A stretch of 64,000 nucleotides of DNA from Hydrogenothermus marinus. Lineage in GTDB: Bacteria > Aquificota > Aquificia > Aquificales > Hydrogenothermaceae. The DNA is taken from contig NZ_REFO01000011.1 of the NCBI RefSeq assembly GCF_003688665.1, positions 186,001 through 250,000 of the forward strand, in the 5' to 3' direction. Shown here piece after piece: positions 8,340 to 55,720 of this stretch. A program made the position numbers and the translations under genes. The notes below the pieces were generated by a model that had not been told where the DNA came from, made no database searches, and saw nothing but the letters and a program-made list of their open reading frames with translations. The first letter of the stretch is position 1; each line of letters starts with the position of its first letter.

Positions 8340-8407
8340 ACTTTAATTTTAAATTTTTTAGAGTTATTATTTTCCTCCAAAAAAACAAAAAAGGGGTGAT
8401 TTTTAAC

Positions 8408-9730
8408 TTGGATATCTGGGGTGATATTGTCTCTTCAATGGCTCCAAATATAGATAAAAATTCTTTAAAGCTTTTGAAGGGAATACATAAAACAAAATTA
8501 GAAAATAATAAATTTAAAATATATACCCCAGATATAGTTTATAGAGACTGGCTTGATTCAAACTATAAAGAAGATATAAAGAAAATACTTTATAGATTAA
8601 CAGGAAAAAATCTAATTGTTGAAGTAATATCTGAAGAAGAAATCCAATTAAAAAAAGAAAAAAGAAAAATAGAAAAACAGCTTCCAAAAGAAAAATTAGC
8701 ACAACCAATAAATCTTAATCCTAAATTTACCTTTTCAAATCTTATTATTGGAAATTGTAATAAAGTAGCCTACAAAGCAGCTATAGCAGTAGCAGAAAAT
8801 CCGGGAAATATTTATAATCCTCTTTTTATATATGGAGATATAGGGCTTGGGAAAACCCATATATTACACGCTACTGCCCACTATATGCTTTCTAAAAATC
8901 CAGATGCAAATATTATTTATACTACTGCAGATGCTTTTATGTCAGAACTTATAGCATATATGCAAAAAGGTTCTATCTTAGACTTTAGAAGAAAGTATAA
9001 AAATATAGATTTACTACTTATAGATGATGTCCAGTTTTTAGTAAGAAAAGAAAGAACTCAGATTGAGTTGTATTATATATTTAACGCTTTACATCTAATA
9101 AGAAAGCAAGTGATTTTATCATCAGATACACCACCTTCAAAACTAAAAGGAATTCAAGGTAGATTGTTAAGTAGATTTGCAAGTGGATTAGTAGTTGAGG
9201 TTAAACCACCTGATATTGAAACAAAACTGAAAATAATAAAGAAAAAAGCACAAGAATTTAAAATGGATATTCCTTATGATGTAATGCTTTTTATTGCAAA
9301 AACAGTAAACACAAATATAAGGGAACTTGAAGGTTCTTTAACTAAGTTAAAGGCTTATAGTCAAATAATGGAAAGGCCTGTAACCCTTGATATGACAAGA
9401 GAAGTCTTAAAAGATATTTTAGAAATAAAGCAGATTGAAGAATTTTCAATAGAAAAAATACAAAAAGAAGTAGCTAATTATTTTGCAGTTAATATAAATG
9501 AGATATTAGGCTCTTCAAGAAAGAAAAAAGTAGTAATGGCAAGACAGATAGCTATGTATCTTGCTAGATATTTAACTGATAAATCTTTAAATGAAATATC
9601 AAAAGCTTTCAAGAAAAAGGATCATACAACTGTAATAAATGCAATAGAAAAAGTAAAAAAACAGATGGAAAAAGATAGAAAATTTAAATTAACAGTAGAA
9701 TTTCTAAGAGATAAAATACTTACAAGTTAA
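8408..9730 (+). CDS. dnaA: Chromosomal replication initiator DnaA (TTG start)
   Basis: Binds DnaA boxes and unwinds the origin. Seen in 440 residues: N-terminal domain I (LDIWGDIV...), a Lys/Glu-rich linker, FTFSNLIIGNCNKVAYKAA, Walker A GDIGLGKTH, Walker B LLLIDDVQF, sensor II region NIRELEGSLTKL, and domain IV with the DnaA signature KKKDHTTVINAIEKV. The TTG at 8408 is chosen because AAGGGGTGAT, a near-perfect anti-16S match, ends 7 bases before it. An alternative GTG at 8396 lies inside that ribosome site. The gene is about 46 kb from the DnaA-box cluster at 55.4 kb. Confidence 0.97.
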   Translation: MDIWGDIVSSMAPNIDKNSLKLLKGIHKTKLENNKFKIYTPDIVYRDWLDSNYKEDIKKILYRLTGKNLIVEVISEEEIQLKKEKRKIEKQLPKEKLAQPINLNPKFTFSNLIIGNCNKVAYKAAIAVAENPGNIYNPLFIYGDIGLGKTHILHATAHYMLSKNPDANIIYTTADAFMSELIAYMQKGSILDFRRKYKNIDLLLIDDVQFLVRKERTQIELYYIFNALHLIRKQVILSSDTPPSKLKGIQGRLLSRFASGLVVEVKPPDIETKLKIIKKKAQEFKMDIPYDVMLFIAKTVNTNIRELEGSLTKLKAYSQIMERPVTLDMTREVLKDILEIKQIEEFSIEKIQKEVANYFAVNINEILGSSRKKKVVMARQIAMYLARYLTDKSLNEISKAFKKKDHTTVINAIEKVKKQMEKDRKFKLTVEFLRDKILTS

Positions 9731-55153: not shown

Positions 55154-55348
55154 ATGAAAAAATTAGCAATAGTTAAACCAGATTCAGACATTAGGTTTGA
55201 AGAAGTTCCTTACCAGTGTAAATGTGGATACAAAGGAAAAGATACAATCCTTGTATCACAAAATACAGGAATTCTTGATGTAAATTGCCCTAAATGTGGT
55301 AGAAGGATTTTAGAATTTAGAATATTAGAAAATAATGAAGGGAAATAA
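55154..55348 (+). CDS. 64-residue zinc-ribbon protein next to oriC
   Basis: Seen: YQCKCGYKGKD and NCPKCGRRILEFRI, two Cys pairs spaced as in a zinc ribbon, with a beta-rich body. AAAGGAGGTGAT ends 5 bases before the ATG, one of the best ribosome sites in the window, so it is probably well expressed. Its stop lies 29 bases before the first DnaA box. No family is recognised; binding to nucleic acid is possible. Confidence 0.7.
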   Translation: MKKLAIVKPDSDIRFEEVPYQCKCGYKGKDTILVSQNTGILDVNCPKCGRRILEFRILENNEGK

Positions 55349-55423
55349 TCTTTTTTCTGTTTTAGATTTCCCTTCATTATCCACAAGTTATCCACAGGTT
55401 ATCCACAAGTTATCCACAAGTTG

Positions 55424-55452
55424 AAACCCTTTAATATCAACTGTTTGAACCA
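55424..55452 (+). repeat. Origin spacer repeat, copy A
   Basis: A 29-bp element of the form AAACCCTT-n4-ATCAAC-n2-TTTGAACCA between DnaA-box groups. It matches copy B at 24 of 29 positions. It contains no DnaA box. Confidence 0.75.
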
Positions 55453-55606
55453 GTTTCATCCAATTTATCCACAAAAGTTATCCACAAGTTATCCACAACC
55501 TACAAAAAATATGTGGATAACTTAAGAAAAATCAGGCTTAAATTTGAGTTATCCACAAGTTATCCACAGGTTATCCACAAGTTATCCACAACTTATCCAC
55601 AATCTA

Positions 55607-55635
55607 AAACCCTTGTACATCAACATTTTGAACCA
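55607..55635 (+). repeat. Origin spacer repeat, copy B
   Basis: Second copy of the 29-bp element, 183 bp downstream of copy A and again between DnaA boxes. The identical blocks are AAACCCTT, ATCAAC and TTTGAACCA. Confidence 0.75.
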
Positions 55636-55657
55636 CTTATCCACAATTTTTCCACAC

Positions 55658-55720
55658 CTATTATTATTATTATTAATTTATTTAATAAATAAAAAAAATA
55701 TAAAATAATTAAGCAGAAAA
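55658..55720 (+). other. DnaA-trio-like triplets and AT-rich unwinding region
   Basis: One base after the last box, CTA is followed by five TTA triplets (55658-55675), which read 3'-GAT/AAT-5' on the other strand, as in the bacterial DnaA-trio. The next 45 bases are almost pure A/T, fitting a DNA unwinding element. Confidence 0.7.

What the first reader, a model, noticed from the sequence alone, without database searches (positions are those of the whole stretch)
55377..55656. Origin with fourteen perfect DnaA boxes at a strict 11-bp pitch
Seen: runs of 4, 2 and 5 consecutive TTATCCACA boxes spaced exactly 11 bp, nearly all in one orientation. 11 bp is close to one helical turn, so DnaA would sit on one face of the DNA as a continuous filament. 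Most bacterial origins have fewer, irregular and degenerate boxes. A very dense consensus array may suit a thermophile, where protein-DNA contacts are weaker.
Basis: partly seen in the sequence, partly recalled or inferred. Interest (0 to 1): 0.8.

Follow-up and report, generated by a model that had tools for sequence, protein, structure and literature searches.

The report
Chromosome replication origin with DnaA-site arrays
This is almost certainly the place where a heat-loving bacterium of the family Hydrogenothermaceae starts copying its chromosome; its unusually regular rows of perfect DnaA-binding sites are an enriched version of an arrangement already known from E. coli, Thermotoga and Thermus, and not a special adaptation to heat.

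Summary
Fourteen perfect TTATCCACA boxes (0.6 expected) lie at 55377-55645, 13 on + and 1 on -. Runs of 4, 2 and 5 have exactly 11-bp pitch, and a fifteenth, one-mismatch box (55648) completes a last pair. It is the only box cluster found in the 1.6-Mb genome.

The region is an ordinary DnaA-dependent oriC. On the argD side the last box pair abuts CTA(TTA)5 (55658-55675), the 'box pair - short spacer - DnaA-trio' unwinding module (BUS). Most family members with a recovered array have 10-16 boxes and such a trio end, in changing gene contexts. dnaA lies 46 kb away. GC skew is uninformative.

The array is a duplicated module: box run, IHF-like spacer of 55 or 44 bp (multiples of 11), box. Relatives carry IHF sites there in E. 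coli's orientation, mostly 18 or 28 bp from the unwinding-side box (E. coli: 18). They also encode IHF-like proteins; this genome kept only HU.

The 2-bp gap (11-bp pitch) is known from E. coli and T. maritima. The thermophile idea fails: mesophiles have longer runs, most other Aquificota genera lack close pairs, and another family uses 12-13 bp.

Left over: why every box is high-affinity, and whether IHF bending is ancestral.

The parts
55377..55418 (+). Module 1 box run: 4 perfect DnaA boxes at 11-bp pitch (starts 55377, 55388, 55399, 55410)
55419..55464 (+). Module 1 spacer, 55 bp box start to box start (5 x 11), holding a strict IHF-consensus match TATCAACTGTTTG at 55435-55447; E. coli R5M-R1 is also 55 bp
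55465..55497 (+). Three perfect boxes (55465, 55478, 55489; pitches 13 and 11)
55512..55520 (-). The single inverted perfect box; relatives have 3-4 inverted central boxes here at about 21-bp pitch
55549..55601 (+). Module 2 box run: 5 perfect boxes at 11-bp pitch; near copy of module 1
55602..55636 (+). Module 2 spacer, 44 bp box start to box start (4 x 11), with IHF-like CATCAACATTTTG (one mismatch) at 55618-55630
55637..55656 (+). Box pair of the basal unwinding system: perfect TTATCCACA (55637-55645), 2 bp, TTTTCCACA (55648-55656)
   Evidence: BUS rules in PMC8287927
55658..55675 (+). DnaA-trios CTA(TTA)5 on this strand (3'-GAT-(AAT)5-5' on the other), 12 bp after the perfect box: predicted site of first strand opening
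55676..55713 (.). Very A+T-rich continuation of the duplex-unwinding element
   Evidence: sequence
8396..9730 (+). dnaA (the only Bac_DnaA ATPase-domain match in the genome), 46 kb from the array; TIGR00362 489 bits; C-terminal DnaA-box-binding domain PF08299 present

Best explanation
The region 55377 to about 55713 is the chromosomal oriC. DnaA (window 8396-9730) fills the perfect boxes; within the 11-bp runs neighbours lie on nearly one face of the helix and join head to tail. The two IHF-like spacers (44 and 55 bp) let the DNA bend, probably by HU in this organism, so that the box-run oligomer is brought to the box pair at 55637-55656. From there DnaA spreads onto the trio strand at 55658-55675, opening the A+T-rich element where the helicase loads. 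Shown by sequence: boxes, pitch, module duplication, trios, uniqueness in the genome, recurrence in relatives, canonical DnaA, loss of IHF-like genes. Inferred from E. coli, B. subtilis and T. maritima work: oligomer, bend, opening, and origin activity itself.
For: 14 perfect boxes versus 0.6 expected. Only cluster in a 99.95%-complete genome. Perfect box, degenerate box, then trios with a 12-bp spacer and GAT as the first trio, as in the published BUS rules. 10-16 perfect boxes in almost all of the about 20 family arrays examined, and a box plus CTATTATTA-type trios at the same end in nearly all of them, while neighbouring genes change. One canonical DnaA with the DHTTV box-recognition motif and conserved AAA+ residues, best match B. 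subtilis DnaA 8btg. IHF-consensus sites in family arrays 29 observed versus 1.9 in shuffles; their placement matches E. coli IBS1. Closely spaced E. coli boxes also have a 2-bp gap and the same face (PMC4451416); T. maritima DnaA dimers form best at a 2-bp gap (PMC10316083).
Against: No functional data. GC skew and gene orientation do not point to the array: genes on this contig converge towards it rather than diverge, and strand-corrected skew is flat; in the closed relative G015 the best skew fit (4.99) is below the 95% permutation level (5.94) and is not at the array. dnaA is 46 kb away. The IHF-like sites of the window differ in orientation and distance (6 bp) from those of relatives, and one has a mismatch. 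A few relatives (such as G014, G031, G032) have smaller or differently built clusters.
Confidence: 0.93

Rival explanations
1. The array is a DnaA-titration or regulatory site (datA/DARS-like), and the origin is elsewhere.
For: Many high-affinity boxes could titrate DnaA; dnaA is 46 kb away and skew gives no support.
Against: No other close box pair exists in the genome to serve as the origin, and the array carries trios in the right place and orientation, recurring in relatives.
Confidence: 0.03
2. The array is the origin of an integrated plasmid or other mobile element.
For: A Pantoea plasmid (L036) has a similar 7-box run, and neighbouring genes differ between relatives.
Against: One such cluster per genome in the family, on the main chromosome of the closed relative G015 (1.93 Mb); flanked here by chromosomal housekeeping genes (secA, argD) with no replication or integrase gene among the flanking ORFs.
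Confidence: 0.02
3. It is the origin, but the dense 11-bp consensus array is a thermal adaptation.
For: Hydrogenothermaceae are thermophiles; Thermus oriC has 13 consensus or near-consensus boxes (PMC4451416).
Against: Long 11-bp runs occur in groups not known as thermophiles (Dependentiae/TM6, Binatia, Alysiella, Dichelobacter). In family f2 of the same order, ten genera (g13-g21 and most of g12) have no close perfect pair. Most thermophilic relatives in the same family have runs of only 2-3.
Confidence: 0.06

Closest known systems
E. coli oriC, left half (R1 - IHF site IBS1 - R5M/tau2/I1/I2)
   Same: Boxes in one direction, 2-bp gaps, unwinding-side box separated from the array by a bend-site spacer of the same length (55 bp box to box, here in module 1; 54 bp in most relatives), unwinding element beyond the box
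   Different: E. coli array boxes are low-affinity and ATP-DnaA specific; here nearly all are perfect. E. coli uses IHF; this genome has only HU. No opposed right-half array here
Thermus thermophilus oriC (Schaper et al. 2000, via PMC4451416)
   Different: Its exact pitch was not compared here (original paper not held)
Thermotoga maritima oriC (PMC10316083)
   Same: Direct boxes with 2-bp gap favour DnaA dimer formation; trio-type elements in the unwinding region
   Different: Own box consensus, fewer boxes, an inverted box
B. subtilis basal unwinding system, BUS (PMC8287927, PMC6669920)
   Same: Box pair with degenerate downstream box, short spacer, trios starting with GAT
   Different: Trios here are GAT then AAT repeats; upstream array far denser
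Origins of other Hydrogenothermaceae (such as G015, G018)
   Same: 10-16 perfect boxes, trio end, IHF-like spacers
   Different: Relatives have 3-4 inverted central boxes at 21-bp pitch and mostly shorter 11-bp runs

Membership tests
DnaA-dependent bacterial oriC | Cluster of DnaA boxes, unique in the chromosome | tested here: met
DnaA-dependent bacterial oriC | A+T-rich unwinding element next to the boxes | tested here: met
   55658-55713 is almost pure A+T
DnaA-dependent bacterial oriC | Genome encodes canonical DnaA | tested here: met
DnaA-dependent bacterial oriC | GC-skew switch at the site | tested here: inconclusive
   no usable skew in the family
DnaA-dependent bacterial oriC | Replication starts here | not testable with these tools
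   needs marker frequency or an autonomous-replication assay
BUS (box - spacer - DnaA-trio) | Box pair, upstream closer to consensus; at most 16-bp spacer; at least 3 trios | tested here: met
   perfect then one-mismatch box, 12-bp spacer, 6 trios
E. coli-type left-half oriC with IHF bend | IHF consensus between unwinding-side box and array, in E. coli orientation | tested here: inconclusive
   met in many relatives (18 or 28 bp, same orientation); in the window the orientation is reversed and one site has a mismatch
E. coli-type left-half oriC with IHF bend | IHF subunits encoded | tested here: not met
   only one DNABII gene, best NCBIfam match HU-beta though below cut-off; relatives have IHF-alpha-like and IHF-beta-like copies

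The most novel reading that the evidence does not exclude
The E. coli-style bent origin (unwinding element - box - IHF site at fixed distance and orientation - same-direction box array) is also the plan in Aquificota, and the window's lineage lost IHF, let the sites drift, and strengthened the origin by duplicating modules and lengthening 11-bp runs of perfect boxes.
Probability: 0.2. Interest if true: 0.6.

Novelty: new member of a known kind. Interest (0 to 1): 0.35.

Why it matters
It gives a clear origin for a family in which GC skew cannot find one, and a natural origin in which nearly all array boxes are high-affinity. In E. coli, making the low-affinity boxes consensus-like causes over-replication (cited in PMC12342881), so this lineage must time initiation in another way. 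The IHF-site geometry shared with E. coli, together with IHF-like genes in relatives, makes it testable whether origin bending is ancestral or arose twice; a recent review holds IHF to be limited to a few phyla such as proteobacteria (PMC10380432).

Tried and rejected
GC skew, AT skew, gene orientation and four-fold-site skew on the own contig, on a 41% sample of the closed relative G015 and on a 20% sample of G018: no significant origin signal. secA-argD synteny as origin evidence: shared only with G004 on the secA side. Thermal adaptation: rejected on distribution. A new non-DnaA motif between the boxes: resolved as IHF consensus TAAnnnnTTGATW; TAAGTNATTGATW also occurs elsewhere in the genomes, so it is not origin-specific. 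A clean rule 'IHF lost, runs longer' was not found: G003 has IHF-like genes and a 5-box run. No paper on Aquificales origins was found in the held library.

Full report
Observation. The window holds exactly 14 perfect TTATCCACA, all in 55377-55645 (0.61 expected), 13 on + and 1 on -, with 11-bp runs of 4, 2 and 5; a one-mismatch box at 55648 makes a further 11-bp pair. The genome (1.604 Mb, 18 contigs, 99.95% complete) has 13 other perfect boxes, all isolated, and no second close pair of TTATNCACA. The window lies at 186001-250000 of a 372,577-bp contig.

What it is. The array fills the gap between a 64-aa zinc-ribbon-like ORF behind secA (55154-55348) and argD (from 55729). Past the last box pair the sequence reads CC-TATTATTATTATTATTAAT; read as triplets from 55658 it is CTA(TTA)5, the complement of 3'-GAT-(AAT)5-5'. 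This fits the published basal unwinding system: a closer-to-consensus upstream box, a weaker downstream box, a 10-13 bp spacer (12 here) and GAT as the first trio. The single dnaA lies at 8396-9730, 46 kb away, with no box within one mismatch in the 600 bp around its start; its product is a full-length DnaA, closest in the PDB to the B. subtilis structure 8btg.

Relatives. Exact 11-bp pairs occur in 24 of 41 family genomes. Arrays of 10-16 perfect boxes with the trio end recur in different gene contexts. In the genomes checked with a looser pattern the close pairs lie at one place (G000, G013, G015, G018, G035, G040; G022 has one extra pair elsewhere; G033 none). Relatives carry 3-4 inverted central boxes at about 21-bp pitch; the window keeps one inverted box and instead has longer direct runs.

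Modules. 55377-55473 and 55549-55645 are near copies: box run, spacer with AAACCCTT....ATCAAC..TTTGAACCA, box. The spacers measure 55 and 44 bp from box to box, both multiples of 11, so register is kept across each spacer, but the two modules are in different registers. Over 14 family arrays same-strand distances peak at 11-12, 21-22, 44-45 and 54-55 and fit a period of 10.5 bp best (R=0.54); for distances of 15 bp and more the best period is 11.8 (R=0.48) with 10.5 close behind (0.465), and related sequences are not independent.

The spacer motif. A profile built from the spacers gave TAAGTTATTGATA, an exact match to the IHF consensus TAAnnnnTTGATW (PMC10380432). Strict sites in the arrays number 29 against 1.9 in shuffles (related sequences). 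In G015, G017, G018, G024, G028 and G037 the site (strict or with one mismatch) ends 18 bp before the unwinding-side box; in genera g2-g5-like arrays (L144-L149) it ends 28 bp before, one helical turn more; in E. coli MG1655, read from the record, the site between R5M and R1 ends 18 bp before R1 and the box-to-box distance is 55. The 18-bp agreement was noticed afterwards and on its own would happen by chance perhaps once in 30-60 tries. Strict sites also occur in several family f2 arrays but in only one of nine f5 arrays.

Bending protein. The window's genome has one DNABII gene (C11:97267), most like HU-beta though below the NCBIfam cut-off; most complete relatives have 3-4, including copies closest to IHF-alpha and IHF-beta, also below cut-off. 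HU can replace IHF at E. coli oriC (PMC10380432), so HU bending here is plausible but inferred.

Pitch and heat. E. coli arrays have exactly 2-bp gaps on one face (PMC4451416) and T. maritima DnaA dimers prefer 2 bp (PMC10316083), so the 11-bp pitch is not new. Four or more perfect boxes in a row at this pitch were found in 34 stretches among 84,980 species: Dependentiae/TM6, Binatia, Armatimonadetes, Alysiella, Dichelobacter and others, with runs up to 11 in a Binatia MAG (at a contig end), 7 in a Pantoea plasmid and 6 in Halanaerobiales. In Aquificota, ten family f2 genera (most of g12 and g13-g21) lack close perfect pairs, and family f5 uses 12-13 bp, with six in a row at 12 bp in G130. Heat is therefore not the driver; growth temperatures were not looked up and rest on general knowledge.

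Origin by skew. The family has no usable skew: own contig, G015 sampled at 41% (best 4.99, 95% permutation level 5.94) and G018. Genes near the array run towards it. This neither supports nor refutes the origin.

Verdict. An ordinary, well-built DnaA origin of a known kind, richer in perfect boxes than E. coli's, probably through module duplication. The open points are how initiation is limited with so many strong boxes, and whether the IHF geometry is inherited or convergent.

Noticed in passing
L036 (Pantoea edessiphila plasmid pSOE2), 3164-3610: 15 perfect DnaA boxes, all in one direction, with a run of 7 at 11-bp pitch.
   Followed up: no
L045 and L047, positions 11-121 (Binatia MAG): Runs of 8 and 11 perfect boxes at 11-bp pitch, both at contig ends, possibly the two sides of one array broken in assembly.
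   Followed up: no
L032, L042, L053, L056 (Dependentiae/TM6 and a bacterium MAG): Opposed sets of 4-6 boxes on + and - at 11-bp pitch, like the two halves of E. coli oriC but with consensus boxes.
   Followed up: no
family f5 genomes, such as G130:C23:7532-7600 and L217: Another Aquificota family uses 12-13 bp pitch, up to 6 boxes in a row, with opposed sets; only one of nine arrays has a strict IHF site.
   Followed up: partly
G000:C11:97267-97536 (L161): The only DNABII (HU/IHF) gene of the window's genome; most relatives have 3-4.
   Followed up: yes
55154-55348: 64-aa zinc-ribbon-like ORF beside the array, no Pfam hit; 57% identical copy beside the array of G004.
   Followed up: partly
family arrays, such as L152 and L143: A second conserved spacer element, about GTAAGTGTTCTAATA followed by A/T, precedes the last box run in many relatives and was not recognised in the window.
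   Followed up: no
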